The notes under the pieces: generated by a model
Seen by the model: the letters and a program-made list of their open reading frames with translations, nothing else
The model's database searches: none
What the model was told of the DNA's origin: nothing
Shown: piece by piece, positions 5,692-50,268 of the stretch
How the letters are laid out: each line of letters begins with the position of its first letter
Position numbering within the stretch: the stretch's first letter is position 1
Position numbers and translations under genes: made by a program
Origin: Alistipes sp.
GTDB taxonomy: Bacteria; Bacteroidota; Bacteroidia; Bacteroidales; Rikenellaceae
Length of the DNA stretch: 64,000 nt
NCBI GenBank assembly: GCA_017631275.1
Contig: JAGBTQ010000003.1
Span: 1 to 64,000, forward strand
Reading direction: 5' to 3'

Positions 5692-5821
5692 ATTTCTTGT
5701 TAGAAGGGGTCAGATTTGGCTTATCGCAAAAGTGAGCACCTGAGGATAGTACAAGAAGTACAGCCTCGGGTGCTCAGCCTTTTGGGATAGGTCGAAGATG
5801 ACCCCTTATCACAAGAAATTA
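5692..5821 (-). repeat. Stop-codon-anchored structured terminator repeat, copy A
   Basis: On the minus strand the element starts with TAATTTCTTGTGATAAG (5821-5805); its first three bases are the stop codon of the FadL-like gene. It ends with CTTCTAACAAGAAAT (5706-5692). The two ends pair (TTTCTTGT with ACAAGAAA, then AAGGGGTCA with TGACCCCTT). A central 13-bp stem (5733-5745 with 5764-5776, one wobble pair) carries the conserved GTAC-n5-GTAC tip and is flanked by AAAA and TTTT, as in a two-way terminator. Four further copies are listed below. Confidence 0.85.
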
Positions 5822-7483
5822 GAAGCGGAGACCAAGCGTCAGCACCGCAACATGCTTCACAATCTCGGTTGATACGGGAGCACTCTCGATGCTTATGCCA
5901 TAGCCTGTGGCGTAGAACGACTGATAGGCGGTATGGCACGTATTATTATATTGGTATGCAAGGTCGAGATATGTCGTTTCGCTGAAGCGAATGCCGATAC
6001 CCGCAGTGATATAGCGCTGTGAGGCGATTAGCGGGTGGGTATAGAGCTGGCTCTCGTCCTTGATAGCATCGCCACTATAGATATATCCCGCACGTAGGTC
6101 GAGGCATGGCAGAGCTCTAAACTCGGCACCAAGGCGTAGTGTATTTGAGTGGCGGAACATCTCGTGGATAGTTGCCGTATAATCGAGGTTCTTGATGGGC
6201 GAGCGACGCAGCCACATATCGTCGTAAAATGCCGCCTCGTAGTCTGCCGAGAGGATAAGACGCTGTGCGATGGTGAGGGCAACACCCGCCATTAGGCGCG
6301 ATGGCGAGCTTACACGCCATGAGTAAGAGCCTGCGTCCTCCCACTCGGGGGTCTGCACATAGTCGCTGGTGTAGCCACGGCTATCGAGGTCGTAGCCATC
6401 GGGGTTGTTACCGGCGCTAAAGGTGCTCGACCACATGTCGCCATAGTAGCTTAGCGAGAGGTTATAGGCTGTGCGTGTGTGGTATGCTGCACCGATGCGC
6501 AACCACGCCACAGGGCGCCACGTGAAGCCCACCTTAAAGTTTACGCCAGTGCCCGAGAGGCGTGTGGCCTGCAAGTAGTTCATATACTCCAACTGGTATG
6601 GCATCTCGTCGCCTGAGGGGTAGCCATCAGGATAGTTGTAGTTCTCGCCATAGTATACATTGCGCTGATACTCAACACTCTGAATGCCAAGCGTAGCACC
6701 CAAGTAGAACTTATCGACAAAGTTGAAGCCCATGGTGAAGGCATACTCGCCAATGCCACCAATGGTCTCGACAGCGGTAAACTGATCCACAGCCGAGTCG
6801 ATGCCTATGCGGTCGATAAACCAGCCCTGGTCGTCCTTGTTGGTCAAGCCATTCTTATAGGCGAGTATCGCACCCCAGTAGTAGGGGTCGTTACCCCAGT
6901 TCATCTTGCCGTCGGCACCCGTTGTCAGGCCATCGGCATTCGACTGCTCGCAGAAGAGGTTTGCCAACGAGTTCACCGCCTCGTTGCCAAGCTGCGCAAA
7001 TTTGTAGCTCTGGTTGAAGTCGGCAATGCGGTTATAGGCGAAGCCGAGGTTAAAGTTGGTGAGTGCTCCAGAACCACGATATACTGTGCCGACACCACCG
7101 ATGCTCGACATGGCTAAGCGGCTCTTCTTGTTCTGAAACTCCGACGAGTCGAAGCTATCGGCACCAGGAGTCTTAGCTCGCGCAAAGTTAATCACTGGCG
7201 TAACGCTAAAGTCGCTATTTACGTACATACCTATACCTGCTGGGTTGAGCGAGGCAGAGACCATATCGGCGCCGAGTGCCGTGAAGGCATTACCCATAGC
7301 CATAGAGCGCGCTGTGCCATAGTTATGCGCTGTGAACGAGAGGTTGTATAGGTCGCCCCAACCCACGATGTCGTTATTCATCGTAACGCCACCTACATTT
7401 ATCTGCTGAGCCATAGCTCCCGACATTAGCCATAGGCTAAGTGCGGCTGAGGCTATAAGCGAATATATCTTCTTCATAACCAT
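5819..7483 (-). CDS. FadL/OmpP1-like outer-membrane transport protein
   Basis: A 554-residue beta-barrel protein of the OMPP1/FadL/TodX type common in Bacteroidetes, which moves hydrophobic compounds across the outer membrane. A signal peptide (MVMKKIYSLIASAALSLWLMSGAMA) precedes the mature start QQINVGG. The N-terminal hatch region carries the family signature GTARSMAMGNAFTALGAD and SASLNPAGIGMY. The rest alternates in short aromatic-rich strands and ends in LTLGLRF, a typical terminal barrel strand with Phe last. An alternative start lies two codons in (7477). It is the second gene of an operon with the preceding lipoprotein gene (17-base gap), and its TAA stop is the first triplet of repeat copy A. 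Substrate unknown. Confidence 0.88.
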   Translation of the reverse strand: MVMKKIYSLIASAALSLWLMSGAMAQQINVGGVTMNNDIVGWGDLYNLSFTAHNYGTARSMAMGNAFTALGADMVSASLNPAGIGMYVNSDFSVTPVINFARAKTPGADSFDSSEFQNKKSRLAMSSIGGVGTVYRGSGALTNFNLGFAYNRIADFNQSYKFAQLGNEAVNSLANLFCEQSNADGLTTGADGKMNWGNDPYYWGAILAYKNGLTNKDDQGWFIDRIGIDSAVDQFTAVETIGGIGEYAFTMGFNFVDKFYLGATLGIQSVEYQRNVYYGENYNYPDGYPSGDEMPYQLEYMNYLQATRLSGTGVNFKVGFTWRPVAWLRIGAAYHTRTAYNLSLSYYGDMWSSTFSAGNNPDGYDLDSRGYTSDYVQTPEWEDAGSYSWRVSSPSRLMAGVALTIAQRLILSADYEAAFYDDMWLRRSPIKNLDYTATIHEMFRHSNTLRLGAEFRALPCLDLRAGYIYSGDAIKDESQLYTHPLIASQRYITAGIGIRFSETTYLDLAYQYNNTCHTAYQSFYATGYGISIESAPVSTEIVKHVAVLTLGLRF

Positions 7484-7500
7484 TGATTTATTAGATTATG

Positions 7501-8934
7501 TTATCTGCGTGATGATGTGCTACCACCTCGTGAGCTACTGCTGCTTGAGCCACCAAATGAGCCACTGCCCATCGAGCGTGTTGTGGTCGATGACGAGCCT
7601 ACGCTACGGCTGCTCGAACCCACGGTGGTGCTACGCGAGGTTGTTGTGGTTGTGCCACTCGAACGTGAGCTCGACGACGAGGTGCCACGCACGGTTGTCG
7701 ATGTTGTGCTACGGCTCGACGATGTTGAAGTACCCTTGTTCACCTTTGTGGTGGTTGTGGTAGTACCTCTATTTGTGGTGCTGCCCGAGCCTCCAGTGCT
7801 CTTTGTTGTTGTCGTAGTCTTGGTGCTCTGGCGGAAGTTGCCATTGCCACTGTTGCCACTATTTGTTGTTGTCGTGGTTGTTGTGCCACGGCTAACATTT
7901 GTAGGCGTTGTTGTGCCACTACCCTTGGTGGTGGTTGTGCCACGGTCAACAGTCGTTGTGGTTGTGCCACGATACTTACTATCGGTGTTTACGCCTGTAG
8001 ATACCGAGCCACGGCCATTTGTTGGGCGTGTTACTACGGTTGTGCCGCCATAGTTCTTGTTCGATGTTGGCGAGGTGTAGCGTGTGCCCGAATTGTCGCG
8101 ACCATTGTGGTTGCCCGCGATAGGTCCTGACGAAGCACCCGAGCCAGTAGATACAAAGCCATGGTTAGAGCGGTTGTGGTCTGGGCGCTGAGGGCGGTGC
8201 TGTGGCGGACGCGGCGACACAGGCTTATGTGGGTGATAGTGGTTGTGGTAGTGGTGATAGTAGTGGTTGTGGTAGTGCGACCAATAGTAGCTATCGTAGT
8301 ACCATGGGTTATAACAGATGGTCCAGTTCCAATCGTACCACGAGTAGTGAGGATAGCCCCAGCATGAGTAGTAGAATGGATCTACACGATAGCTCCAGCC
8401 ATAGTTCCATGGCGAGGCATAGATGCCGAAGGTTACGTTTGTAGCACCCCACGAGCCAAACATCGAGGTGATGAACTTAGGCTCTACCCACACCTGGTTG
8501 CCCGACACCATGATGTTATAGAGTGCAGGGTCATACGCCGTAGCATACTGCATTGCACGGCTGTAGGATAGGTCGTAGTAGCTCGATGGCATGCGGTATG
8601 AGGGCGAGTTGAAGCCATACAACCTGCGAGCATAGGCGCTCTCATAGTCGTTGGCAATGATTGTCTGGTAGTTTGGCTCGGCAAGCGATGCGTAGTATTC
8701 AGCCTCGGCACGCTCCGCCTCTGCCTCTGCCTGACGTGCTGCCCACTGCGCCTCACGAGCCTCTGCCTCGGCTCGCTGTGCCTCAGCCTCAGCCTTAAGA
8801 CGGTTGGCAACAGCCACACGGTTGTCGGTGCGATATAGGTCGCTTGAGCCCAGCGACGATGTCATAAATAGCGACGAGCAACTTGTGAGCATTACCCCAC
8901 CCACAAGCGCAAATATCATAACAAATCTTCTCAT
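7501..8934 (-). CDS. Low-complexity Ser/Thr/Gly-rich lipoprotein
   Basis: Starting at 8934 gives a lipoprotein signal, MRRFVMIFALVGGVMLTSC, with lipid-modified Cys19; an ATG at 8985 would lie only a few bases after the predicted transcription start, so it is unlikely. Domains in order: an Ala/Glu-rich helical segment (repeated AEAEAQRAEAEAR), a middle part rich in Tyr, Trp and His (SWYDWN, then a YYHHYHNHYH run), and a long C-terminal region dominated by Thr, Ser, Gly and Arg (RGTTTTT, GTSSSSSR). I do not recognise the family. The tail is probably disordered and could be O-glycosylated, as extracytoplasmic Ser/Thr-rich proteins of Bacteroidetes often are. It precedes the FadL-like gene by 17 bases. 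Confidence 0.75.
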   Translation of the reverse strand: MRRFVMIFALVGGVMLTSCSSLFMTSSLGSSDLYRTDNRVAVANRLKAEAEAQRAEAEAREAQWAARQAEAEAERAEAEYYASLAEPNYQTIIANDYESAYARRLYGFNSPSYRMPSSYYDLSYSRAMQYATAYDPALYNIMVSGNQVWVEPKFITSMFGSWGATNVTFGIYASPWNYGWSYRVDPFYYSCWGYPHYSWYDWNWTICYNPWYYDSYYWSHYHNHYYHHYHNHYHPHKPVSPRPPQHRPQRPDHNRSNHGFVSTGSGASSGPIAGNHNGRDNSGTRYTSPTSNKNYGGTTVVTRPTNGRGSVSTGVNTDSKYRGTTTTTVDRGTTTTKGSGTTTPTNVSRGTTTTTTTNSGNSGNGNFRQSTKTTTTTKSTGGSGSTTNRGTTTTTTKVNKGTSTSSSRSTTSTTVRGTSSSSSRSSGTTTTTSRSTTVGSSSRSVGSSSTTTRSMGSGSFGGSSSSSSRGGSTSSRR

Positions 8935-8997
8935 AACGCCAAAGGTTTTAGTATTGGAGAAGAGCAAAAACTCTGCTATGTCCACTCTCTCCTATGG

Positions 8998-9005
8998 CAA
9001 AGATA
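8998..9005 (-). promoter_or_regulatory. Promoter -7 box for the lipoprotein/FadL-like operon
   Basis: TATCTTTG on the minus strand matches TAnnTTTG exactly. Transcription would begin near 8991, leaving a leader of about 57 bases before the preferred start codon at 8934. No good -33 TTTG box is visible. Confidence 0.5.
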
Positions 9006-9118
9006 GTAAAAAATTTACTATTTCCCATATTTTCTCCCTCGAAACGCCCACTTCATGGGGTGAAACGCCAAATTAGCAGGGCGAAACGACAATGTTGAGT
9101 GCTTCGGCAGCTCTTATC
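9006..9118. other. Intergenic stretch between divergent operons, nothing further seen
   Basis: This part of the roughly 330-base gap between the divergent lipoprotein and moxR operons has no gene. It includes three related CGAAACG(C/A) motifs (about 9041-9088), which could be coincidence or a binding site. Confidence 0.4.
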
Positions 9119-9149
9119 TTTGCCTTTTCCACTTTTTTTTATATATTTG
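9119..9149 (+). promoter_or_regulatory. Bacteroidetes promoter for the moxR/Bat operon
   Basis: TTTG (9119-9122), 19 bases and TATATTTG (9142-9149) fit the consensus in both boxes and spacing. The resulting leader of about 105 bases includes a small hairpin, ACGTCC-TCT-GGACGT (about 9175-9189). Confidence 0.75.
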
Positions 9150-9262
9150 CAATAATTTGGACCATAGTTTCGTTACGTCCTCTGGACGTGAGGCGGTAAC
9201 AAACCCTAAAATATCAGGTCCTAACCCAACCACGTAAACAAAATAAAAACATATAACACACA

Positions 9263-10261
9263 ATGAACGAGGTAGTTAACATCAAAGAGCTTAATGCTCA
9301 CATCGAGCAGGAGTCGATATTTGTCGATACCCTACGCAAGGAGATTGGACGCGTGATTGTTGGTCAGCAGCATCTTGTAGATACGCTCCTTATAGGTCTT
9401 CTTTCGGGCGGACACATTTTGTTGGAGGGTGTGCCAGGCTTGGCTAAGACACTTGCCATAACAACACTTTCGAAGGCTGTAGATGCCAAGTTTGCACGTA
9501 TTCAGTTTACCCCCGACCTGCTCCCTGCCGACCTTATAGGTACGCTCATCTACTCGCAGCGCAACGAGGAGTTTACCGTGAAGCGAGGCCCTATCTTCGC
9601 CAACTTTATCCTTGCCGACGAGATCAACCGCTCACCAGCAAAGGTGCAGTCGGCACTCTTGGAGGCTATGCAGGAGAAGCAGGTGACAATTGGCGATACT
9701 ACCTTCGCTCTTCCCGAGCCTTTCCTTGTTCTGGCTACGCAGAACCCATTGGAGCAGGAGGGTACCTACCCACTTCCTGAGGCGCAGGTAGATCGTTTTA
9801 TGCTCAAGGCTAAGATCTCGTATCCTAAGCGTGCCGAGGAGCTCGACATCATTCGCATGAACCTCAATGGCGCAGGCCTTCCCGAGGTGCAGCGTGTCAT
9901 TCGCCCCGAGGACATCATGCGTGCCCGCGAGGTGGTGAGCCAGGTATATATGGACGAGAAGATCGAGAAGTATATCATAGATATCATCTTTGCTACGCGT
10001 GAGCCATCGGAGTATAAACTTAATCATCTTCAGCCACTTATCGCATATGGCGGCTCGCCACGTGCCAGCATCTCGCTAGCTAAGGCAGCCAAGGCCTACG
10101 CCTTTATTCAGCGCCGTGGCTATGTCATTCCCGAGGATGTGCGTGCCGTGTGTCACGACGTATTACGCCACCGCATAGGTCTAACGTATGAGGCTGAGGC
10201 TGAGAACATCACTACAGAGCAGATTATCACCGACATTCTTAACAACGTCATCGTGCCCTAA
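9263..10261 (+). CDS. MoxR family AAA+ ATPase
   Basis: A 332-residue AAA+ ATPase of the MoxR group, chaperone-like ATPases that act with von Willebrand factor A (VWA) proteins. Walker A is GVPGLAKT (residues 56-63) and Walker B ends ILADE (116-120). The sensor region includes LATQNPLEQEGTYPLPEAQVDRF. It is the first gene of a six-gene operon (DUF58, BatD-like, TPR, two VWA proteins), the Bacteroidetes 'Bat' (Bacteroides aerotolerance) arrangement. Its stop overlaps the next start (TAATG). The operon is linked to stress or oxygen tolerance in Bacteroides fragilis; the molecular target is unknown. Confidence 0.95.
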   Translation: MNEVVNIKELNAHIEQESIFVDTLRKEIGRVIVGQQHLVDTLLIGLLSGGHILLEGVPGLAKTLAITTLSKAVDAKFARIQFTPDLLPADLIGTLIYSQRNEEFTVKRGPIFANFILADEINRSPAKVQSALLEAMQEKQVTIGDTTFALPEPFLVLATQNPLEQEGTYPLPEAQVDRFMLKAKISYPKRAEELDIIRMNLNGAGLPEVQRVIRPEDIMRAREVVSQVYMDEKIEKYIIDIIFATREPSEYKLNHLQPLIAYGGSPRASISLAKAAKAYAFIQRRGYVIPEDVRAVCHDVLRHRIGLTYEAEAENITTEQIITDILNNVIVP

Positions 10262-11145
10262 TGCAGCTTAGCGAGAACGAAATATTGCGCCGTGTGCGCC
10301 GAGTCGAGATTAAAACCCGAGGCCTCTCCGACGAGATATTCGCCGGAAAGTATCATACTGCCTTTCGTGGTCGAGGCATGTCGTTCTCGGAGGTGCGCGA
10401 GTACCGCGTGGGAGACGATGTGCGAGATATCGACTGGAACGTTACAGCCCGCACGGAGCGTGCTCATGTCAAGGTATATGAGGAGGAGCGTGAGCTTACG
10501 ATGATGCTCCTTGTGGATGTGTCGCCATCACGCCTCTTCGGCTCGAAGGAGCTCACAAAGAAGAATGTGATAACCGAGATTGCGGCGACGCTCGCCTTCT
10601 CGGCATCGAAGAACAACGATAAGGTGGGCTGCATACTCTTCTCGGACCATGTCGAGAAATTTATACCGCCAAAGAAGGGTCGTAGCCACATCCTCACGAT
10701 TATCCGTGAGCTTGTGGGCTTCCAGCCTACGGGAACATCGACACACCTCTCTGAGGCACTACGCTACCTTGTGGGCGTGAATAAGAAGCGCACAACAACC
10801 TTTATCCTCTCCGACTTTATCAACTCGGAGGGCGACAGACAGAAGCTTGAAGATGCCCTAAAAATCGCCTCGTCGAAGCACGACATCGTGGCTATCGAGG
10901 TCTATGATGAGCGCGACAGAGAGCTTCCCGATGTGGGTATTATCGAGGTTGAGGATGCCGAGACAGGGCAGCGAGAGTGGCTCGACACCTCGTCGGGCAA
11001 GGTGCGCGAGTATTGGCTCAAGCGCTTCGACGAGGAGCATGCAGATATGCAGTCGCTCCTTAAGCACAACCGCATAGATAGGGCAAGCGTGGCTACCGAT
11101 GGTGACTACGTTGCCGAACTTATCAAGATGTTTAAACAGCGATGA
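10261..11145 (+). CDS. DUF58 domain protein
   Basis: A 294-residue soluble protein of the DUF58 family, the constant partner of MoxR ATPases. The signature region RGMSFSEVREYRVGDDVRDIDWNVTART is at about residues 37-64. A VWA-like fold follows, with LLVDVSPSRLFGS in the place of the metal-binding DxSxS motif. Its start overlaps the moxR stop codon and its TGA overlaps the next ATG (ATGA), so translation is coupled on both sides. Probably an adaptor or substrate of MoxR. Confidence 0.93.
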   Translation: MQLSENEILRRVRRVEIKTRGLSDEIFAGKYHTAFRGRGMSFSEVREYRVGDDVRDIDWNVTARTERAHVKVYEEERELTMMLLVDVSPSRLFGSKELTKKNVITEIAATLAFSASKNNDKVGCILFSDHVEKFIPPKKGRSHILTIIRELVGFQPTGTSTHLSEALRYLVGVNKKRTTTFILSDFINSEGDRQKLEDALKIASSKHDIVAIEVYDERDRELPDVGIIEVEDAETGQREWLDTSSGKVREYWLKRFDEEHADMQSLLKHNRIDRASVATDGDYVAELIKMFKQR

Positions 11146-13138: not shown

Positions 13139-13141
13139 AGT

Positions 13142-25710: not shown

Positions 25711-26724
25711 ATGGAAAACATTAAATGGGGAGAGCTTGGTTTTGCCTACTACAAGACCGCTTTCAATGTTCGCTACCACTACGCTAACGGTCAGTGGAGC
25801 CAGATGGAGGTAACTGATGACGAGTACATCAAGATGCACATGTCAGCAGCTTGCTTGCACTATGGTTTGGAGATCTTCGAGGGTCTTAAGGCATTCCGTG
25901 GCGTTGATGGTAAGGTACGTTTGTTCCGTCCAGACGAGAACGCTAAGCGTATGATCAACTCAGCAAACCGCCTCTGCTTGCCAGCTCCAACTGTTGAGCA
26001 GTTCGTTGAGGGTTGCGTTGAGTGTGTTCGCCGCAACGCTGACTTCATTCCTCCTTACGAGACTGGCGCATCACTCTACTTGCGTCCAACTCTTCTTGGT
26101 ACTAAGACTTGCCTTGGCGTACGTGCTGTTGATGAGGCCGACCTTATCATCTTCTGTGCTCCTGTAGGTCCTTACTTCAAGGGCGGCATGTCAGCTATCA
26201 AGGCTCTCATCATGCGTGATCAGGACCGTGCTGCTCCACGTGGAACAGGTGACGTAAAGGTAGGTGGTAACTACGCTTCATCTATCTGGTCGTTGGAGGC
26301 TGCTCACGAGAAGGGCTTCTCTAACGTATTGTATCTCGACGCTGCAACCCACTCAAAGGTTGAGGAGTTTGGTGCTGCAAACTTCTTCGGTATCAAGAAC
26401 AACACTTATGTAACTCCTAAGTCAGCATCTATCCTTCCATCAATCACCAACAAGAGCCTTCGTCAGATCGCTGCTGACCTCGGTCTTACTGTTGAGGAGC
26501 GCGATATTCCTGTTGAGGAGCTCGCTACGTTCGAGGAGGCTGGTGCTTGCGGTACTGCTGCAGTTATCTCACCTATCGGTGCATTGTATGACCTCGACAA
26601 TGGTGTTACTTACGACTACGGCATGAAGGTTGGCGAGACTTGCAAGAAGATGTACGACCACCTTCAGGGCATCCAGTACGGCCGTGTTGAGGATATCCAC
26701 AACTGGAACGTAGAGGTAATGTAA
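25711..26724 (+). CDS. ilvE: Branched-chain amino acid aminotransferase
   Basis: A 337-residue class IV pyridoxal-phosphate enzyme that performs the last step of valine, leucine and isoleucine synthesis and the first step of their breakdown. The substrate motif HYGLEIFEGLKAFR is at about 50-63; the cofactor Lys is expected in the DVKVGGNYASS segment; VLYLDAATHSKVEEFGAANFF is the family signature. Codon use is strongly biased, as for a highly expressed gene. Its TAA stop is followed at once by structured repeat copy B, which brings a second in-frame TAA. Confidence 0.95.
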   Translation: MENIKWGELGFAYYKTAFNVRYHYANGQWSQMEVTDDEYIKMHMSAACLHYGLEIFEGLKAFRGVDGKVRLFRPDENAKRMINSANRLCLPAPTVEQFVEGCVECVRRNADFIPPYETGASLYLRPTLLGTKTCLGVRAVDEADLIIFCAPVGPYFKGGMSAIKALIMRDQDRAAPRGTGDVKVGGNYASSIWSLEAAHEKGFSNVLYLDAATHSKVEEFGAANFFGIKNNTYVTPKSASILPSITNKSLRQIAADLGLTVEERDIPVEELATFEEAGACGTAAVISPIGALYDLDNGVTYDYGMKVGETCKKMYDHLQGIQYGRVEDIHNWNVEVM

Positions 26725-26854
26725 TAATTTCTTGTGATAAGCCGTAATCTGCGGCACATCTCAAAAAGCTGACTACCCGAGGCTGTACGTCTTGTACTAT
26801 CCTCGGGTAGTCCCTTTTTATATGCACCACATCTAACGACTTCTAACAAGAGAT
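26725..26854 (+). repeat. Stop-codon-anchored structured terminator repeat, copy B
   Basis: It starts TAATTTCTTGTGATAAG directly after the ilvE stop codon and ends CTTCTAACAAGAGAT. The end pairing TTTCTTGT/ACAAGAGA has one wobble pair. The central stem GACTACCCGAGG (26771-26782) with CCTCGGGTAGTC (26801-26812) is perfect, with AAAAA before and TTTTT after, and the tip contains GTAC-n5-GTAC. Unlike copies A, C and E it lacks the GCTGATTGA extension; the parS-like sites lie just beyond it. Confidence 0.85.
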
Positions 26855-26871: not shown

Positions 26872-26885
26872 GTTCCACGTGGAAC
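26872..26885. promoter_or_regulatory. parS-like site 1 (GTTCCACGTGGAAC)
   Basis: A perfect 14-base palindrome, extending to 18 bases (ACGTTCCACGTGGAACGT, 26870-26887). It fits the ParB/Spo0J-binding consensus GTTnCACGTGnAAC, the centromere-like sites that cluster near replication origins. It lies in the gap beyond the 3' end of mnmG. Confidence 0.7.
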
Positions 26886-38061: not shown

Positions 38062-38436
38062 ATGGCAGAGGAGAAAACCCGTTACAACGACGCTGAGCTC
38101 GAGGAGTTCCGCCTGTTGATTGAGCAGAAGTTGGCCTCGGCAAGAGCCGACTACGATATGTTGCGCACAGCAACAAGCAACGAGAACGACACCGAGGATT
38201 CATCTCCTACGTTCAAGGTTATGGAGGAGGGTGCCACAACACTCTCTAAGGAGGAGTATGGCCGTTTGGCACAGCGCCAGGCTAAGTTTATCCGCAACCT
38301 CGAGATGGCTTTGGTGCGTATCAAGAACAAGACCTACGGCATTTGCAAGACCTCAGGCAAGCTCATTCCACGTGAGCGTCTATTGCGTGTTCCGCATGCT
38401 ACTGAGTGCATCGAGGTGAAGGAGGCCCGCAAGTAA
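38062..38436 (+). CDS. TraR/DksA family protein with degenerate zinc finger
   Basis: A 124-residue helical protein of the TraR/DksA type, which binds the secondary channel of RNA polymerase or acts as a general regulator. The coiled-coil part is at residues 10-85; the C-terminal block YGICKTSGKLIPRERLLRVPHATECIE has Cys only at the first and last of the four metal positions (CxxS ... HATEC). Such loss is seen in Bacteroidetes homologues. Its TAA stop is the first triplet of repeat copy C. Confidence 0.88.
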   Translation: MAEEKTRYNDAELEEFRLLIEQKLASARADYDMLRTATSNENDTEDSSPTFKVMEEGATTLSKEEYGRLAQRQAKFIRNLEMALVRIKNKTYGICKTSGKLIPRERLLRVPHATECIEVKEARK

Positions 38437-38561
38437 TTTCTTGTGATAAGGAGTCGATTGCGGCCCCTAGAAAAAATGCCACCAATGGGACGTACATCTA
38501 GTACTACCCATCGGTGGCATTTTTGCCGAGTGTAGCACTCGGCACCCTTCTGACAAGAAAT
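38434..38561 (+). repeat. Stop-codon-anchored structured terminator repeat, copy C
   Basis: TAATTTCTTGTGATAAG (38434-38450) begins on the stop codon of the DksA-like gene; CTTCTGACAAGAAAT (38547-38561) closes the element. AAAAAATGCCACCAATGGG (38471-38489) pairs with CCCATCGGTGGCATTTTT (38507-38524), one mismatch, a strong two-way terminator with the conserved GTAC-n5-GTAC tip. An extra perfect hairpin, GCCGAGTG-TAG-CACTCGGC (38525-38543), lies in the right arm. The core is nearly identical to copy E. Confidence 0.87.
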
Positions 38562-38745
38562 CTAGTGCGCTGATTGATGTGGTAGATTAAGGAGTTTAGT
38601 GATAGCCTTTCCTTAATCTCCTTAAATTCCCTAATCTCCCTATTTCAGCGCTTCCATCTATCCCATTCGTCCCATCTTTCCCATAAAATAAACCCCGTGC
38701 GAAGCACACCTTACTTTTCACCTCTCACTTTTCACTTTTCACCTT
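38562..38745 (+). repeat. Downstream module block attached to copy C
   Basis: In order: TAGTGCGCTGATTGA, then a GGTAGATTA ... AAGGAGTTTAGTGATAG block shared with copy E, CTCCCTAATCT-like short repeats, TCCCAT units (38654-38683), CCCC plus the hairpin GTGCGAAGCAC (38697-38707), and TTTCAC(C/T) heptads (38713-38745). The heptads run into the ComM-like gene, whose TGA stop (38739-38741, minus strand) lies inside the last repeat. Confidence 0.75.
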
Positions 38746-41893: not shown

Positions 41894-42194
41894 ACCCTAA
41901 ATAAGCACAAAAATTTTCACATCCACAAAATTAGAAATTTTATCGAAAAGAGCAACTATATTTTCCCTATAAGTTATCATAAGTTGTTTTCGGGTTGTTA
42001 ACACCAAATTGTTAATAATGTAGAATTAGTACCACGCCTCGCACCTCACTATATTTTCAACTTATACCACTATAAGAAAATAATATTAAAGAAAATAGAT
42101 ATAAAATATTACATCTAAAATATTATTTATACATTTGCAGCGGAATAAAATTTGTAACAAGTTTAGTAGATATAATAAATAAAGTATAAAGATT
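41894..42194. other. A/T-rich divergent region between dnaB and the peroxidase gene
   Basis: No gene seen. It contains a dnaB -7 box on the minus strand (TAATTTTG, 41933-41926), the peroxidase -7 box at 42130-42137, and long A/T-only stretches (about 42065-42130). No clear operator found. Confidence 0.45.
42130..42137 (+). promoter_or_regulatory. Promoter -7 box of the glutathione peroxidase gene
   Basis: TACATTTG fits TAnnTTTG, 57 bases upstream of the start codon. No clear TTTG -33 box. Confidence 0.5.
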
Positions 42195-42785: not shown

Positions 42786-42796
42786 ATAAAAGTAGA

Positions 42797-42830
42797 GAGC
42801 CTGACCGCTAATCATAAGTTGGTCAGGCTC
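42797..42830 (+). terminator. Terminator of the peroxidase gene
   Basis: GAGCCTGACC (42797-42806) pairs perfectly with GGTCAGGCTC (42821-42830), followed by the T-rich ATTATTTTAT. It may also serve the convergent SH3 gene. Confidence 0.85.
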
Positions 42831-42852
42831 ATTATTTTATATTATAGGTTAA

Positions 42853-43599: not shown

Positions 43600-44083
43600 C
43601 TTACTTTTTATTTAGTGTTTTCAAATTTTAATTCGAGGTTATATCTCTACAACAAATTTAGGTATTTTTTCTCGAACCACAAAGGCCAACTTTTCAACAT
43701 TATAATTTTTATTGTTTTATACTTATATATATAATTAAAAATAAAATATAAATAATAATAGCTGTTGATAGTGTCAATAACTTTGAAGTGGGGTAGTTCT
43801 CAACATTTAGTTTTATTTTTGTTGATTATTTTTTATTTGTAATTTATTGAAAATAAGTAAAATAGATAGAAATTAACAATATCAACAATTATATTATAAA
43901 CATATAAACAAAGCTAAAATATTAACATCTGATGATAATAACCTCGCTTTTTGAAGTTGATAACTGACATGAAAGATTTATTCAATTTTATTTGCAAAGA
44001 AAGAGTGACCGTATATACAACGACCACTCTCAAACTTGCAAATCTTTTTATTAAAAATTTACCGACAATTACTAACACTGTTT
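43600..44083. other. Long A/T-rich gap with six TGTTGA-type motifs
   Basis: This 480-base gap has no gene and contains long stretches of nearly pure A/T. Six 9-mers close to TGTTGATAA occur in both orientations: 43691-43699 (-), 43763-43771 (+), 43797-43805 (-), 43820-43828 (+), 43879-43887 (-) and 43955-43963 (+). They differ by one or two bases from the DnaA-box complement TGTGGATAA. At the right end is a hairpin serving the Mrp gene. Confidence 0.45.
43991..44042 (-). terminator. Nested hairpin after the Mrp gene
   Basis: The outer pair TTTGCAA/TTGCAAA (43991-43997 with 44036-44042) encloses AGAGTG/CACTCT (44002-44007 with 44025-44030). It lies about 40 bases past the Mrp stop codon on the minus strand. 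Confidence 0.5.
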
Positions 44084-45139
44084 TTAACAATCGGCAGGTA
44101 GCTTTTCAACAACCTTGTCGGCGATGTTAGCATAGTACTCCTCGACACGTGGGTCGAAGCCACCAGCAGGACGACCCTCGTCGCCACCCTCCATGATAGA
44201 TTGGATAATAGGTACCTGACCCAATAGCTCGATGCCCGCCTCCTCAGCATAGCGTGCAGCACCACCCTTACCAAACAAGTAGTAGCGGTTATTTGGCAAC
44301 TCCTCAGGCGTAAACCATGCCATATTCTCAACAACACCCAACACAGGAATGTTTACCTGTGGGTGGCGGAACATCTCGACACCACGCACAACATCGGCAA
44401 CAGCAACCTGCTGAGGTGTAGATACGATGACAGCACCAGAAATCTTAAGCTCGTTGATAATAGAGAGGTGAATATCGCCAGTTCCTGGAGGAAGATCTAT
44501 GAGTAGGTAGTCGAGCTTACCCCAACGTGTCTGGTGAATGAGCTGATGTAGGGCATTTGACGCCATACCACCACGCCACATAAGAGCGTCGGTAGGCTTG
44601 ATGAAGAAGCCGATAGACATAACCTTGATGCCCAACGATTGTGCTGCAATCATATACTCGTTGCCCTCCTCGTCTTTCTCAGCCTCAGGAATGTAGCCCT
44701 CAACACCAAACATCTTAGCCTGCGAAGGGCCGTAGATGTCAGCATCGAGAATACCTACATTATAGCCATGCTGGCGCAGTGCCACAGCGAGGTTAGCAGT
44801 GATTGTTGACTTACCTACACCACCCTTACCCGAGGCAATAGCAATTATGTTGCATATCTGAGATATTGTTGTCTGCTGCTCACGACGGCGAGGCTTTGGC
44901 GCTGCCTCACGAATAATTACCATGCAGTCGTTCTCAGGGAACGACTGCTTCATGAGCTCCTCAACCTGGCGCTTTACCTTCTGTGCAAAGGGGTCGCGCG
45001 CCTTCTGAAAGCGTAGAGTGATGGCAATAGAGCCATCTTCGCCTCTATCGGCACGATCAACAAAGCCGCTATCTACGATATTTTGCTCGGTCTCTGGGTG
45101 TATGATTTGACGCAGTAGCGCCTCCAACTGTTCATTCAT
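44084..45139 (-). CDS. Mrp/ApbC family iron-sulfur carrier ATPase
   Basis: A 351-residue P-loop ATPase that carries and delivers Fe-S clusters. The N-terminal MIP18/DUF59 domain (residues 1-75) is followed by the deviant Walker A GKGGVGKST (about 110) and DLPPGTGD. The CxxC pair expected near the C-terminus of Nbp35/ApbC proteins is not seen; the C-terminus ends KLPADC. It starts 24 bases after sppA and may be transcribed with it. Confidence 0.92.
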   Translation of the reverse strand: MNEQLEALLRQIIHPETEQNIVDSGFVDRADRGEDGSIAITLRFQKARDPFAQKVKRQVEELMKQSFPENDCMVIIREAAPKPRRREQQTTISQICNIIAIASGKGGVGKSTITANLAVALRQHGYNVGILDADIYGPSQAKMFGVEGYIPEAEKDEEGNEYMIAAQSLGIKVMSIGFFIKPTDALMWRGGMASNALHQLIHQTRWGKLDYLLIDLPPGTGDIHLSIINELKISGAVIVSTPQQVAVADVVRGVEMFRHPQVNIPVLGVVENMAWFTPEELPNNRYYLFGKGGAARYAEEAGIELLGQVPIIQSIMEGGDEGRPAGGFDPRVEEYYANIADKVVEKLPADC

Positions 45140-45163
45140 ATCTATAAGGGGTACTATATTTAA

Positions 45164-46957
45164 TTAAAGGTTTACTTCTATTTTTTGTGGCATCTCCATT
45201 AATATACCTGTGTGGGTGAAGATGTATAGGTTATCCTTAACAAGGCTGTTAAGCTCCTTGCCATATATGCCATAGTTTATGCCGCACGCCTTGGCTGTCA
45301 TCATGCCCATAGCCTCGAGCCATGCCTCAAATGGTGTTAGTGGAGTCTTTATCTCCTTGAGTTTAAACTCAGCACCGAGGTCGGCAAGGTCAGCAGCCTT
45401 AGCTATAGCCTCGTGCAAACCACCATTAGCATCTACCAAGCCGTTGCCCACAGCCTGATTACCACTCCACACTCTACCCTCAGCAATGTCGTACACCTGC
45501 TCGATAGTTAGGTTACGACCCTCAGCCACCTTGCTTGTAAAGGTGGTGTAGATGTTATCCACGCTCTTTAGTAAAACCTCCTTCTGGCGCTCGGTCATAG
45601 GGTTAAGGTAGCTCATAGGCATAGCCTCGGGCGATGTGAGAGCATAATCTACGGTTATGCCGATACGGTTTTTAAGAAGTTTTGAAATATTTGGAATCAT
45701 GCCAAACACACCTATTGAGCCGGTCATAGTAAGTTTATTAGCAATGATATAATCGGCTGGAGCAGAGATGTAGTAACCACCGCTTGCTGCATTCTCACCC
45801 ATAGATATAACCACAGGCTTGCTCTCTTGTAGCAGCTTCATCTCTCGCCAGATGATATCTGAGGCGAGGGCTGAGCCACCAGGCGAGTTAACACGTACAA
45901 CAACAGACTTAACACTACTATCGAGGCGTGCCTCACGAATCTGCTGTGCAAGGCTATTACCAAAGATGTAGCCGCTACCCACCTCGTTGCCATCAACTAT
46001 CTGACCATCAGCATAGATAATACCTACATTCTGGGTGCCAGCCATCTGAGGATTTACCACAGTGAGATTATTGGCATACTCGCCAAGCGATATCTTATGT
46101 AGCTCACCTCGGCGGTTAGACTTTACACCCATCTCCTCGAGATATTTGTATAGTCCGTCCTCATACTCCACCTCGTTGATAAGTCCATGTTTCTTAGCCT
46201 CCTGTGGCGTGTTCACACTAAGGTTTGCAGCAAGCGCCTTGAGCTTTGCTGGCTCTATGTTGCGCTGTAGGGCAACATCATTAACAATAGTTGTCCACAT
46301 ATCTTCGGCGAGACTCTCCAACTGCTGGCGGTTAGCCTCCGACATTTGTGTTAGGAAGAATGGCTCAACTGCACTCTTATATTTACACACCGTAGGGCGG
46401 AAGATCTCGACACTAACATCCAACTTATCGAGCAGGCCCTTTATAAACACAGTGACGAAAGCCATTCCTCGCCACTCAATGGAGCCTTCTGGGTGCATTG
46501 ACACGCGGTCGGCAACAGATGCTAAGTAGTACTCGCTCTGTGTGAAGTTGTCGTCGTAGGCAACAACAAACTTTCCCGACTGCTTGAAGCGCAAGAGTGC
46601 CTGACGTAGCTCCTCGATGTTTGTTGCCGAGATTGTGCCCAAGCCATTCTGGTAGATGCATACACCCTCGATGTTTGGGTCTTGTGCAGCATACTCTAAT
46701 GCCGACAGCGCCTGCAAAATGGTTATTGACGACTCCATGCTAAGGGAGTTCACATCTATCGTAGGCATAACATTTGGCGAATCTACAACACTCTCGCCAA
46801 GGTCGATATATAGAACCGAATTTTTCTGAGTCATTGTCGTCTCTCCACCAAACGATGCGAGTAGCGAGAAGCCAAAGATTAGGCTTAGAATAAATACCAC
46901 TCCCGAGCCAATGACCACTGCGGCAAGGGCTGCTAAAAATGTCTTCCAGAAATTCAT
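45164..46957 (-). CDS. sppA: Signal peptide peptidase SppA (67K type)
   Basis: A 597-residue membrane protease of family S49 that degrades cleaved signal peptides. One N-terminal membrane helix (about residues 5-30) precedes two tandem S49 domains. The catalytic Lys is expected in the first domain (FVTVFIKGLLDKLDV) and the Ser is in the second (GENAASGGYYISAPADYI). The active site faces the periplasm. Promoter at 46989-46996. Confidence 0.94.
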   Translation of the reverse strand: MNFWKTFLAALAAVVIGSGVVFILSLIFGFSLLASFGGETTMTQKNSVLYIDLGESVVDSPNVMPTIDVNSLSMESSITILQALSALEYAAQDPNIEGVCIYQNGLGTISATNIEELRQALLRFKQSGKFVVAYDDNFTQSEYYLASVADRVSMHPEGSIEWRGMAFVTVFIKGLLDKLDVSVEIFRPTVCKYKSAVEPFFLTQMSEANRQQLESLAEDMWTTIVNDVALQRNIEPAKLKALAANLSVNTPQEAKKHGLINEVEYEDGLYKYLEEMGVKSNRRGELHKISLGEYANNLTVVNPQMAGTQNVGIIYADGQIVDGNEVGSGYIFGNSLAQQIREARLDSSVKSVVVRVNSPGGSALASDIIWREMKLLQESKPVVISMGENAASGGYYISAPADYIIANKLTMTGSIGVFGMIPNISKLLKNRIGITVDYALTSPEAMPMSYLNPMTERQKEVLLKSVDNIYTTFTSKVAEGRNLTIEQVYDIAEGRVWSGNQAVGNGLVDANGGLHEAIAKAADLADLGAEFKLKEIKTPLTPFEAWLEAMGMMTAKACGINYGIYGKELNSLVKDNLYIFTHTGILMEMPQKIEVNL

Positions 46958-46988
46958 AACATCACGTGTTTTAGGTAAAACGTTAGTG

Positions 46989-46996
46989 CAAATATA
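46989..46996 (-). promoter_or_regulatory. Promoter -7 box of sppA
   Basis: TATATTTG on the minus strand fits TAnnTTTG, 32 bases before the start codon. Confidence 0.55.
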
Positions 46997-47105
46997 CTAA
47001 TAATTCTCCAATTATAACCCCTAAAAAATAGATATATCAACATAATAATTTAAGTTGTTGTGTGTTAAAATAGGGGTAATATTAGGAGATTATACCTAAT
47101 TTTAT

Positions 47106-47113
47106 TATATTTG
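47106..47113 (+). promoter_or_regulatory. Promoter -7 box of the nrnA/ABC exporter operon
   Basis: TATATTTG fits TAnnTTTG, 20 bases before the start codon, divergent from the sppA promoter. Confidence 0.6.
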
Positions 47114-47132
47114 CATACTTAATACTATTAAT

Positions 47133-48158
47133 ATGCAGTTAGCATCTTCAAAGATAGAGGCCCTTCGCGAGCTACTTGCAAAGCCTCAGTCGATAGTTAT
47201 TCTTTCGCACACCAACCCCGATGGCGACGCTATTGGCTCGTCGTTGGCATGGGCTGAAATATTGCGCAAAGAGGGTCACGATGTAACATGTATAGTGCCT
47301 AATCGTTATCCCTACTACCTCGAGTTTATGCCCAATATCTCTGATATTGTGATCTTCAAGAGCGATAGCGAGGGTAGAGCCAAGGAGGCACTAAAGCGTG
47401 CCGATATCATCTTCTGCCTCGACTTTCATCTACTATCTCGCCTCGACCAGCTTGGCGACATCATCGATGAAAACCAGCATGCTAAGCGTGTGCTTATCGA
47501 CCACCACCTCGATGCTTCCGACGACTTCGACATCATGTTCTCGCACAGCGAGGCATCGAGCACCTGCTACCTCGTGGCACGCCTCATCGAGGAGATGTAT
47601 GGTGTGGAGCACATATCCCGCTCCATGGCAGAGAACCTCTTTGTGGGCATGATGACCGACACGGGCAACTTCTCATTCTCGTCGGTTACACCCGATGTAT
47701 TCCGTGTTGTGAGCCTTCTTGCCGAGACAGGCATATCTATTCCCGATATCCATATCCACGTATATAACTCCTTCACAGAGGGTCGTGCACGACTGTTTGG
47801 CTATGTCATCAACCGCAAGATGAAGATCTTCCACAACGGCACTGTAGCCCACATGTCGATTACCGAAGAGGAGATGCGTAGGTTCTGGTTCCAGCAGGGC
47901 GACTCCGAGGGCTTTGTAAACTATCCGCTAACAATCAAGAAGATGAAGCTCTCGGCAATGTTTACCGAGCATAGCGACTTTATCCGTGTGTCGCTTCGCT
48001 CACGTGGCGACATCGATGTCAACCTCTTTGCCCAGCGCTACTTCAATGGCGGTGGACATAAAAATGCTGCTGGCGGTAAGTCCTACCTCTCGATGGAGGA
48101 TACTATCAAGCACTACGAGAAGTGTGTCAAGGAGTATGCCGCGGAGGGTAGATTGTAG
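47133..48158 (+). CDS. nrnA: DHH/DHHA1 phosphoesterase, NrnA-like
   Basis: A 341-residue manganese enzyme that degrades very short RNA (nanoRNA), pAp, or in some relatives cyclic dinucleotide products. Metal motifs: SHTNPDGDAIGSS (about 29-41), FCLDFH (Asp), and LIDHHLDASDDF (the DHH signature, about 112). The C-terminal DHHA1 domain ends in GGGHKNAAGG. It is followed after 17 bases by the ABC exporter gene. Confidence 0.95.
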   Translation: MQLASSKIEALRELLAKPQSIVILSHTNPDGDAIGSSLAWAEILRKEGHDVTCIVPNRYPYYLEFMPNISDIVIFKSDSEGRAKEALKRADIIFCLDFHLLSRLDQLGDIIDENQHAKRVLIDHHLDASDDFDIMFSHSEASSTCYLVARLIEEMYGVEHISRSMAENLFVGMMTDTGNFSFSSVTPDVFRVVSLLAETGISIPDIHIHVYNSFTEGRARLFGYVINRKMKIFHNGTVAHMSITEEEMRRFWFQQGDSEGFVNYPLTIKKMKLSAMFTEHSDFIRVSLRSRGDIDVNLFAQRYFNGGGHKNAAGGKSYLSMEDTIKHYEKCVKEYAAEGRL

Positions 48159-48175
48159 AACGAAACACAAAAACC

Positions 48176-50014
48176 ATGTTCAAAACATATTTACGACTAC
48201 TCAATTTTGCTAAGCCACTAAGTAGGTACACCGTGCCCTACTTCTTCTTTGCCGCCTTTCATGCGTTGTTCAACACCTTCAACTACGCGATGATTATCCC
48301 CATTCTCAACGCCATGTTTGAGAGCGACGGCGGCTTCGGCTTCGAGCCATTATATGAGTTTCCGGGTGTCGAGTTTAGCGAGGCGGGCTTCACGGCTATT
48401 CTCAGCTACCTCTACACTTGTGTCTTTGGTGCGTCGTTTAGTGCTGTGCGCTTCTTGGCGCTTCTTGGCGTTGTCACCATCATGATGAACTTCCTGAGCA
48501 ACGCCTTCCGCTATGCTGCGGCGATGACTGTCGAGAGGTTGCGTGTAAACACCATTCAGCGCATGCGCGACGATATGTACTCGCACATCATCAACCTCAA
48601 CGTAGGCTTCTTCGCTGGTCAGCGCAAGGGAGATATCATGTCACGCATCACACAGGATGTCATGGTTGTGCAGTATTGCATCACCAACACCCTGCAGGTA
48701 GCCTTCCGCGACCCCTTCCTTATCATCGGCTTCCTTGTGCTCATGATTAGCATATCGTGGCAGCTATCGCTCTTTGCCGTTGTCTTCCTCCCCATCGTGG
48801 GTCTTGTCATCGGCCGTGTTGTCAAGCGCTTGCGCCACCCCGCTATGCGTAGCCAGGAGCGCATGGGCGAGCTTGTGTCGGTGCTCGACGAGTCGTTGTC
48901 GGGAATTAAGATTATCAAGGGCTACAACGCCTCAGGCTTCCTTGTCGAGAAGTTTAAGTTTATAAACACGCAGCTCTCCAACCTCCTTATATCTATGGCA
49001 CGCCGCCAGCAGCTCGCCTCGCCTATGAGCGAGTTTATGGGTATCACAGCCGTTGCCGTAATCCTTGTCTTTGGAGGTATCCTCGTGGGTAATGGTCTTA
49101 TCGGAGGTGCTGGCTTTATCGCCTTTATCGCAGCCTTCTCGCAGATAACACGCCCCTTGCGTTCGTTTATCGACCAGTTTGCTAACATCAACCAGGGTGT
49201 TGCTGCTGGTGAGCGCATCTTCGCCATGCTCGACTCTCAGAGCGAGGTGCAGGACGCACCCAATGCTCGCGACTTCGAGGGCTTGAAGCACTCTATCGAG
49301 CTTCGCAATGTGCGCTTCTCATACGACGGCGAGCGCGATGTTATTGACGGCGTTACTATCAAGATAAACAAGGGCGAGACCGTTGCCCTGGTGGGCGCGT
49401 CGGGTGGCGGTAAGTCAACACTCAGTGAGCTTATACCACGCTTCTACGATGTTCAGGCGGGCGAGGTGTTGTTCGATGGCGTGAATGTCAAGGAGTACAA
49501 ACAGGAGTCGTTGCGCCAGAAGATGAGCATCGTGGCGCAGGAGACAGTCCTCTTCAACGACTCTATCGAGGGTAATATCCTTATGGGTCGCCCTGCGGCT
49601 ACTCACGATGAGGTGGTCGAGGCATCGAAGGTTGCTAATGCCCACACCTTCATCATGGAGAGCCCTGAAGGCTATGCCACAAATATTGGTGACCGTGGCT
49701 CAAAGCTCTCGGGCGGTCAGCGCCAGCGTATTAGCATTGCACGTGCTGTGCTCAAAGATCCCGAGATACTCATCCTCGACGAGGCAACATCGGCTCTCGA
49801 CACCGAGAGCGAGAAGCTCGTGCAGGATGCTCTCACTAACCTTCTTGAGGGTCGCACATCAATAGTCATTGCCCACCGCCTAAGCACCATCTACAATGCA
49901 GATAGAATCTACGTCATCGACAAGGGTAAGGTTGCTGAGGAGGGCACTCACTCCGAGCTCCTCGCTCTCAATGGCATCTATGCGCACTTAATAGCAATGC
50001 AAAGCTTCAAGTAA
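48176..50014 (+). CDS. MsbA-like ABC transporter (fused permease and ATPase)
   Basis: A 612-residue half-transporter that works as a homodimer. Six membrane helices occupy residues 20-330; the nucleotide-binding domain has Walker A GASGGGKST, signature LSGGQRQR, Walker B ILILDEATSALD and the H-loop AHRLSTI. The architecture is that of MsbA-type lipid or drug exporters; the substrate cannot be told. Its TAA stop is the first triplet of repeat copy D. Confidence 0.94.
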   Translation: MFKTYLRLLNFAKPLSRYTVPYFFFAAFHALFNTFNYAMIIPILNAMFESDGGFGFEPLYEFPGVEFSEAGFTAILSYLYTCVFGASFSAVRFLALLGVVTIMMNFLSNAFRYAAAMTVERLRVNTIQRMRDDMYSHIINLNVGFFAGQRKGDIMSRITQDVMVVQYCITNTLQVAFRDPFLIIGFLVLMISISWQLSLFAVVFLPIVGLVIGRVVKRLRHPAMRSQERMGELVSVLDESLSGIKIIKGYNASGFLVEKFKFINTQLSNLLISMARRQQLASPMSEFMGITAVAVILVFGGILVGNGLIGGAGFIAFIAAFSQITRPLRSFIDQFANINQGVAAGERIFAMLDSQSEVQDAPNARDFEGLKHSIELRNVRFSYDGERDVIDGVTIKINKGETVALVGASGGGKSTLSELIPRFYDVQAGEVLFDGVNVKEYKQESLRQKMSIVAQETVLFNDSIEGNILMGRPAATHDEVVEASKVANAHTFIMESPEGYATNIGDRGSKLSGGQRQRISIARAVLKDPEILILDEATSALDTESEKLVQDALTNLLEGRTSIVIAHRLSTIYNADRIYVIDKGKVAEEGTHSELLALNGIYAHLIAMQSFK

Positions 50015-50141
50015 TTTGTTGTGATAAGCCGCAATCTGCGGCACATCGTAAAAAGTTAATCACCCTGGGCTGTACTTTTTGTACTATCCCAGGGTGATTA
50101 CTTTTCAGATGCACCACATCTCACGGCTTCTAACAACAAAT
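50012..50141 (+). repeat. Stop-codon-anchored structured terminator repeat, copy D
   Basis: TAATTTGTTGTGATAAG (50012-50028) begins on the exporter stop codon; CTTCTAACAACAAAT (50127-50141) ends the element. The ends differ from copies A-C by C to G, and the partner end changes G to C, preserving the pairing. The central stem TAATCACCCTGGG (50057-50069) with CCCAGGGTGATTA (50088-50100) is perfect. The left arm CCGC-aatct-GCGG forms a small hairpin. Confidence 0.87.
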
Positions 50142-50142
50142 T

Positions 50143-50268
50143 ATTTCTCGTGATAAGGGGTCGATTGCGTCCCCTAGAAAAAATGCCACCAATGGGACGT
50201 ACATCTAGTACTACCCATCGGTGGCATTTTTGCCGAGCGTTGCATCTGCAACCCTTCTAACGAGAAAT
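50143..50268 (+). repeat. Structured terminator repeat, copy E, in tandem with copy D
   Basis: It starts one base after copy D with ATTTCTCGTGATAAG and ends CTTCTAACGAGAAAT (50254-50268). The ends pair as TTTCTCGT with ACGAGAAA, another compensatory change. The central terminator hairpin (50178-50196 with 50214-50231) is the same sequence as copy C, 11.7 kb away. The right arm has GTTGC-atct-GCAAC. This is the only copy not at a stop codon. Confidence 0.87.

What the first reader, a model, noticed from the sequence alone, without database searches (positions are those of the whole stretch)
5692..50268. Family of structured ~130-bp elements, five copies (A-E)
Copies at 5692-5821 (-), 26725-26854, 38434-38561, 50012-50141 and 50143-50268 share an end-to-end plan: pairing termini, a conserved GAT/CTA internal loop, small side hairpins, and a central A-tract/stem/T-tract with a GTAC-n5-GTAC tip. 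No known element I can name matches this plan: REP sequences are much shorter, and integron attC sites have differently placed boxes. This looks like an undescribed mobile or recombining terminator cassette.
Basis: partly seen in the sequence, partly recalled or inferred. Interest (0 to 1): 0.85.

Follow-up and report, generated by a model that had tools for sequence, protein, structure and literature searches.

The report
Swappable DNA hairpins at stop codons
A gut bacterium carries well over a hundred copies of a small DNA hairpin sitting exactly at gene stop codons and mostly pointing along the direction of DNA replication; a sister species keeps the sites but mostly holds different versions, which suggests an unknown system that moves or swaps folded DNA.

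Summary
The five copies are real and belong to a much larger family: 130 distinct covariance-model hits at 106-107 sites in this genome (a lower bound), hits in 74 of 121 genomes of the genus, this one included, and a few distant relatives elsewhere in the order. (1) Of 105 sites with fetched flanks, 97 begin within -12..+10 bases of the stop of a same-strand reading frame, 66 at one exact offset, so that the element supplies the AA of T|AA. (2) 94 of 105 sites share their contig's majority orientation, which is the putative leading-strand sense in 17 of 18 contigs. (3) The bottom (antisense) strand is the one that folds better: 119 of 126 own copies, 98 of 107 from other assemblies. (4) In a sister species 35 of 37 orthologous stops carry an element, but the closest own cassette sits at the orthologous site for only 5 of 50 cassettes. 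No RAYT or extra integrase tracks them. Best reading: attC-like folded-strand cassettes, exchanged by an unidentified enzyme. A sense-strand terminator role is not supported.

The parts
5692..5821 (-). Copy A; starts at the TAA stop of the outer-membrane transport gene 5819-7483 (-). Lies 21 kb left of the parS-like site and is the only copy of this window on the - strand
26725..26854 (+). Copy B; starts right after the TAA stop of the aminotransferase (ilvE-like) gene 25711-26724; convergent with gidA/mnmG
38434..38561 (+). Copy C; shares the TAA stop of the dksA/traR-type gene 38062-38436
50012..50141 (+). Copy D; first cassette of a two-cassette array, shares the TAA stop of the ABC transporter gene 48176-50014
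50143..50268 (+). Copy E; second cassette of the array, close to C
50021..50028 (+). Left conserved box GTGATAAG of D
   Evidence: sequence; box in 203 of 233 copies
50127..50157 (+). Joint between cassettes: CTTCTAAC, linker, GTGATAAG; an imperfect dyad
   Evidence: sequence; similar joints in arrays of both species
5508..5691 (-). Repetitive tail after A (conserved GTGCGCTGATTGAGGTGG, then short repeats)
38562..38745 (+). Repetitive tail after C, related to those after A and E
50269..50363 (+). Repetitive tail after E
26872..26885 (.). parS-like palindrome GTTCCACGTGGAAC, the only exact one in the genome; taken as an origin-side marker

Best explanation
These are non-coding, attC-like recombination cassettes. 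The functional unit is the bottom (antisense) DNA strand, which when single-stranded snaps into a long hairpin; in A, B and D this is a foot stem, then mismatch - one pair - mismatch, then a long stem with a GTAC-n5-GTAC tip. The conserved foot boxes (GTGATAAG and CTTCTRAC) would be the recombinase sites and the variable stem a terminal structure. A trans-acting enzyme, not yet identified (the resident XerC/XerD pair is the simplest candidate), would exchange cassettes between sites and add them in tandem, so that sites persist while their contents turn over. New sites would arise by insertion at the T|A of stop codons of genes that run with the replication fork. Shown: the family, the stop-codon position, the orientation bias, the bottom-strand fold, site retention with content turnover, and empty orthologous sites. 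Inferred: that DNA strand exchange (not copying through RNA, and not plain homologous recombination) does it, which enzyme does it, that element strand means leading-strand sense, and why stop codons are chosen.
For: Covariation. Bottom strand more stable in 119 of 126 own and 98 of 107 other copies, also where the next gene is codirectional (42 of 44). A.C exceeds G.T on the top strand in the inner (25/7) and central (64/12) helices, though not in the outer one (16/19). In 5 of 5 distant copies folded the bottom strand is again more stable, and the three copies of G328 (another family) show the same mismatch - pair - mismatch foot. Stop-codon position: 97 of 105 own sites; in other assemblies 63 of 78 against 728 of 15600 random positions. 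Orientation: 94 of 105 sites. Turnover in the sister species: the closest own cassette is at the orthologous site for 5 of 50 cassettes, at 4 of 35 sites; for first cassettes alone 4 of 36, median rank 30 of 105, median identity 0.78 for orthologs and 0.94 for the best paralog. At C5:49708 and C11:59274 the G066 array has one whole extra proximal unit beginning at GTGATAAG, and at C6:243325 a single cassette differs between conserved flanks. Empty sites: G021 and G004 lack C and D, and G055 lacks D.
Against: No enzyme was found. Bottom strands lie on the presumed leading-strand template, which exposes little single-stranded DNA (in sedentary integrons this arrangement limits recombination; PMC11023631, passages). 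attC R boxes: 0 of 233. Nothing in attC biology known to me predicts exact placement at stop codons. Repeated ends give enough homology for RecA-dependent conversion to produce some swaps. Some contents are inherited: 12 of 35 sites share a cassette at 0.90 identity or more, against 6.5 in shuffled site pairs. Proximal growth of arrays could not be shown by counts (4 sites with two or more cassettes in both species).
Confidence: 0.42

Rival explanations
1. Functional DNA elements at the 3' ends of leading-strand genes, spread long ago and now homogenised by ordinary RecA-dependent ectopic gene conversion; no dedicated enzyme is active today.
For: Sites are retained in the sister species while contents resemble paralogs. 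Conserved ends and tails give tens of bases of homology: in C6:243325 both flanks are kept. In C5:49708 the unusual outer arm AATTTGTC is kept at the site while the first interior differs. No family searched tracks copy number.
Against: Whole-unit differences at GTGATAAG, presence or absence of whole elements at orthologous stops and nested left ends need insertion or excision, not only conversion. It does not explain how copies first reached stop codons.
Confidence: 0.3
2. A miniature inverted-repeat element (MITE) of a TA-targeting transposase, for example IS630/Tc1 type: the outer arms are terminal repeats and TA is the duplicated target.
For: Outer six-base arms are perfect complements in 138 of 176 copies; TA precedes ATTT in 66 of 86 sites with both ends readable.
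Against: TA directly follows the right end in only 24 of 86, and TT in 35. MITEs are not known to me to be held to stop codons or to the replication direction, nor to select a fold of one strand (recalled).
Confidence: 0.1
3. 3'-UTR RNA hairpins (terminators or mRNA stabilisers) of the upstream genes.
For: Same strand as, and starting at the stop codon of, the upstream gene; central stem flanked by A- and T-tracts; one terminator-like match in E, against a mean of 0.4 in shuffles.
Against: The sense strand folds worse than the antisense strand with RNA parameters too (111 of 126 own, 97 of 107 others), and top-strand A.C mismatches exceed G.U pairs over all model pairs (220 to 80). The scan gave no terminator match in D.
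Confidence: 0.08
4. REP-like repeats mobilised by a RAYT/IS200-type transposase.
For: Palindromic, dispersed, next to gene ends; GTAG REPs can supply a stop codon (PMC3733652, passages); single-strand bias.
Against: PF01797 absent in 26 of 26 genomes, element-rich ones included, while the control search finds it in E. coli and four others. Size and boxes differ. Many assemblies are incomplete.
Confidence: 0.02
5. Copies made through an RNA intermediate by a reverse transcriptase (group II intron, retron or DGR-like).
For: Position at stop codons could reflect an mRNA-linked step; orientation follows replication, as recalled for some group II introns; PF00078 is present in 5 of 15 element-rich genomes searched.
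Against: PF00078 absent in the other 10 of those 15: G000, G011, G020, G021, G050, G053, G059, G066, G071, G074; the assemblies are incomplete. The folded strand is antisense to the mRNA.
Confidence: 0.05

Closest known systems
Integron attC sites / CALIN (clusters of attC without integrase)
   Same: Imperfect palindrome of similar size (size recalled) with conserved foot boxes and a variable tip; bottom strand is the strand that matters and, on my reading, lies on the leading-strand template as in sedentary integrons (PMC11023631, PMC8946536, passages); placed at the 3' end of an open reading frame (recalled); tandem arrays.
   Different: No RYYYAAC...GTTRRRY box pair (0 of 233); cassettes carry no gene; about a hundred dispersed sites instead of one array; no sign of an integron integrase: the two Xer-type proteins of this genome fall under that model's cut-off and element-rich G055 and G021 have only two tyrosine recombinases. 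For Bacteroidetes the passages seen name one complete integron, in Salinibacter ruber, after only In0 before (PMC9024848, passages).
REP / BIME / REPIN (GTAG) and CGTC palindromic repeats
   Same: Dispersed palindromes near gene ends; termini of GTAG REPs often supply a stop codon (PMC3733652, passages); non-autonomous. CGTC repeats occur in Bacteroidetes and apparently lack a dedicated transposase (same passages).
   Different: REPs are 20-40 bp; here about 130 bp, and no RAYT family member in 26 of 26 genomes; anchoring at one exact stop-codon offset in 66 of 105 sites.
MITEs (NEMIS/Correia, RUP and the like; recalled)
   Same: Short, non-autonomous, terminal inverted repeats, TA at the left junction.
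   Different: Compensatory evolution of the interior, strand-specific fold, orientation bias; parent transposase not searched for.
Xer-exploiting elements (dif modules, IMEX phages; recalled)
   Same: Would need only the resident XerC/XerD; some use a folded single strand.
   Different: They sit at dif or at one attachment site, not at stop codons; no dif could be identified in this genome for comparison.

Membership tests
Integron attC site | R''/R' boxes RYYYAAC ... GTTRRRY at the two ends (consensus recalled) | tested here: not met
   0 of 233 copies on the top and 0 of 233 on the bottom strand
Integron attC site | Bottom strand is the strand whose fold matters | tested here: met
   Bottom more stable in 119 of 126 and 98 of 107 copies; that it is the recombined strand is not testable here
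Integron attC site | Served by an integron integrase | tested here: not met
   G055 and G021 (element-rich) hold only 2 PF00589 proteins; the two Xer-type proteins of this genome score 151 and 133 bits against a cut-off of 265 for TIGR02249; incomplete assemblies are a caveat, and the proteins of other genomes were not scored
Integron attC site | Located at the 3' end of a mobile gene cassette | tested here: not met
   Three upstream genes tested (ilvE-like, dksA-type, ABC) exist without an element in some relatives; the other upstream genes were not tested
REP/BIME | RAYT (Y1) transposase in the genome or lineage | tested here: not met
   PF01797 in 0 of 26 genomes, control positive
REP/BIME | 20-40 bp palindrome with a GTAG or CGTC tag at one end | tested here: not met
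   About 130 bp; ends are AATTT-like and AAAT in nearly all copies aligned
MITE | Terminal inverted repeats | tested here: met
   Outer arms perfectly complementary in 138 of 176 copies
MITE | Target-site duplication | tested here: inconclusive
   TA before in 66 of 86; TA after in 24 of 86, TT in 35
MITE | Related full-length transposon with a transposase | not tested
   No DDE family searched; lone ends in the fetched stretches, printed for own and relatives' loci, showed no evident gene-bearing copy
Rfam RNA family | Match at or above a gathering score | tested here: not met
   Only a tRNA in the window; three weak sub-threshold hits at D/E
Intrinsic terminator | Fold kept on the sense strand | tested here: not met
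   Sense strand folds worse with RNA parameters in 111 of 126 own copies
Xer/dif-type site | Similarity to the host dif | tested here: inconclusive
   A dif-like pattern recalled from memory gave no excess over the reversed control (10 against 11)

The most novel reading that the evidence does not exclude
A previously unknown class of site-specific recombination in Bacteroidales: gene-free, single-strand hairpin cassettes that install themselves exactly at the stop codons of genes running with the fork, form short arrays, and are swapped wholesale between dispersed sites by a resident enzyme. In effect a dispersed, cargo-free integron without an integron integrase, older than the genus (distant copies in two other families also begin at stop codons).
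Probability: 0.35. Interest if true: 0.92.

Novelty: new variant of a known kind. Interest (0 to 1): 0.78.

Why it matters
If the reading holds, folded single-strand DNA recombination is not confined to integrons, and a chromosome can keep about a hundred fixed landing sites whose contents turn over faster than the genes beside them. How a DNA element finds a stop codon to the base is an open question with no mechanism that I know of. The copies per genome, empty orthologous sites and a strand-specific fold make insertion, exchange and the responsible enzyme directly testable. The family also breaks assemblies (several contigs of this genome end in or beside an element) and can mislead annotation of gene ends.

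Tried and rejected
REP/RAYT: argued against. Integron membership: rejected, although the likeness in behaviour stands. Retro-copying: disfavoured. Terminator or 3'-UTR RNA: disfavoured. Antisense transcript of a convergent neighbour as the folded strand: rejected, because codirectional sites show the strand bias more strongly. Autonomous copy with a gene between the ends: none evident among lone ends of the own and relatives' stretches printed. Addition of new cassettes at the stop-proximal end: suggested by single arrays, not shown by counts (4 sites). dif comparison: inconclusive. Viral contigs: 2 pattern hits, not followed; phages and plasmids: no match to D/E. Chimeric stems: 2 of 57 other copies with 4 mismatches, none above 2 in 64 own copies; A.C was counted as paired there, so this is a lenient count. 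GC skew of the window is weak and gave no origin by itself. One search was a first alignment with seven copies in the wrong orientation; it was replaced and not used. One search looked at first cassettes only; one search repeated the test with all cassettes that the model recognises. One search cut arrays by a text pattern that found no cassette in 1 own and 5 G066 arrays of 36. Literature: searches returned no description of such elements in their listings; only open-access papers are held. Papers: passages seen of PMC11023631, PMC8946536, PMC3733652 and PMC9024848; all others only as search listings.
Full report
Observation. The five copies exist where stated and fold far beyond shuffles on both strands. 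A covariance model from 30 copies of this genome shows real compensation: 94 cells with both sides changed against 32.6 in shuffles, 0 of 500 reaching it; RNAalifold left to itself proposed only the foot, the tip and one other helix. Searched on this genome the model gave 149 matches, which merge to 130 distinct places at 106 or 107 sites, depending on the clustering distance (83 single, 22 double and one triple site at the 106-site clustering). Only 150 of 709 candidates were scored, so this is a lower bound.

Distribution. In the 41 genomes, 13 hit, this one included, all in one genus; 0 of 16 genomes of other families hit. In 121 genomes of the genus 74 hit. In 295 genomes of the order, 3 besides this one hit: G328 (5 matches), G262 and G279 (1 each). 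In G328 and G262 the elements inspected again sit at stop codons: two start on the TAA and one 9 bases before the end of a TGA; the G279 copy has no long reading frame ending beside it. All five copies folded from these three genomes are more stable on the bottom strand, and the three of G328 show the mismatch - pair - mismatch foot.

Position. Of 107 arrays, 105 had fetched flanks; genes were called simply as reading frames of at least 70 codons. 98 of 105 have a same-strand frame as nearest upstream neighbour; 97 begin between -12 and +10 of its stop and 66 at exactly -2, so that the element's AA completes T|AA. 4 have an opposite-strand neighbour and 3 none. One of the four (C17:38087) looks like the end of a shorter gene, by comparison with the sister species. 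The stop codon used is TAA in 86, TGA in 9 and TAG in 2 of 97; the 7 sites at -12 end in the TGA of TTGTGA. Upstream bases show no motif beyond T at -1 (88 of 105). In other assemblies, 63 of 78 first-of-array copies lie at -13..+2, 47 at exactly -2, against 728 of 15600 random positions.

Orientation. 94 of 105 sites share the majority orientation of their contig; none of 20000 shuffles reaches this. Genes of 150 codons or more in the same stretches, leaving out the abutting gene, are 189 on the element strand and 169 on the other, so gene strand alone would give about 53% (p = 6e-16). At four-fold sites the element strand is the T-rich one in 17 of 18 contigs (p = 1.4e-4; C5 is the exception). 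The single exact parS-like palindrome of the genome lies at 26872-26885 of this window; A, 21 kb to its left, points left, and C, D, E point right. B lies just left of it and points right. In contig C6 16 sites are + and 4 are -. That parS lies near the origin and that leading strands are G+T rich is recalled, not tested. On this reading the bottom strand is the leading-strand template, as in sedentary chromosomal integrons (PMC11023631, passages).

Which strand folds. With DNA parameters the bottom strand is more stable in 119 of 126 own copies and 98 of 107 copies of other assemblies; with RNA parameters in 111 and 97. Shuffles show only a small bias from base composition (mean -0.94 against -5.35 kcal/mol). 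It holds at convergent (77 of 82) and at codirectional sites (42 of 44), so it is not an antisense transcript of the neighbour. Top-strand A.C exceeds G.T in the inner and central helices but not in the outer one (16 to 19). The tip GTAC...GTAC is in 214 of 233 copies and GTGATAAG in 203 of 233.

Empty sites. At ilvE, close relatives carry other subfamilies (G053, G055, G059, G011; G056 a few bases further on; G020 by its model hit at C5:708-838), a truncated copy (G071) or none (G074, G050, G021); G004 has only a weak trace (E = 0.03); in G024 the contig ends. At C, G021 (99% identical protein) and G004 have none; at D, G021, G004 and G055 have none and end in TAG, while G056 and G050 have an element and TAA; at A, G055 (66% identical) has none.

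Swapped sites. Those stretches had been chosen around G066 elements; of the 15 sites whose element did not serve for the choice, 13 carry one. The closest of 128 own cassettes lies at the orthologous site for 5 of 50 G066 cassettes, at 4 of 35 sites. Some inheritance remains: 12 of 35 sites share a cassette at 0.90 identity or more, against 6.5 on average (11 at most) in 60 shuffles of sites. For first cassettes alone (36 pairs, one dropped because its alignment stopped short) the ortholog is best at 4, the median rank is 30 of 105, and median identity is 0.78 against 0.74 for a random copy and 0.94 for the best paralog. Of 15 arrays printed side by side, several differ by whole units with conserved flanks. 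By a cruder cut of the arrays, first cassettes are shared at 9 of 30 sites against 3.9 expected and last ones at 5 of 30 against 2.3.

Enzyme. PF01797: 0 of 26 genomes. PF00589: all 26 genomes, but only 2 in the element-rich G055 and G021, and up to 19 in an element-free one; the two Xer-type proteins of this genome are XerD-like and XerC-like. PF00078: absent in 10 of 15 element-rich genomes searched.

Conclusion. The finding is sound and much larger than reported. The structure is better kept on the antisense DNA strand, its place is the stop codon of genes that run, on my reading, with the fork, and its contents are shuffled between retained sites. It works like an attC system in several respects but fails the defining tests of attC; the enzyme and the reason for the stop codon are open.

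Noticed in passing
window 5508-5691, 38562-38745, 50269-50363, 58105-58177: Mosaic tails after the elements: GTGCGCTGATTNAGGTGG, then short (roughly 9-base) repeats in one sense and in the other, then a GTGCGAAGCAC module. A loose form of the tail motif lies within 450 bp of 44 of 105 own sites and the module within 700 bp of 15; its start looks like a degenerate left end.
   Followed up: partly
window 26872-26885: Only exact copy of the parS-like palindrome in the genome, between copy B and gidA; several relatives carry similar palindromes downstream of ilvE.
   Followed up: partly
L205, L213, L242, L262 (own), L327, L331 (G066): Internal-deletion mini cassettes keeping little more than the two foot boxes and about 15 bases between them; those seen lie inside arrays.
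   Followed up: partly
L175, L186, L221, L227, L242 (own) and G066 sites: Nested left ends such as TAATTTCTTG|AATTTGTTGTGATAAG: a new element seems to have entered the foot of an older one.
   Followed up: partly
L255, C21:82667-82796: One copy follows a terminator-like T-run instead of a recognised stop codon.
   Followed up: no
G000 contigs C2, C5, C17, C21, C23, C28, C32: Contigs end in or within a few hundred bases of an element, so the assembly seems to break at this family and copies are likely undercounted.
   Followed up: no
G000:C13:4420-4881 and C13:6428-6683: The XerC-like gene lies about 1.5 kb from a two-cassette array; at this density of elements probably chance.
   Followed up: no
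L358, L359: Two IMG/VR contigs match the element pattern.
   Followed up: no
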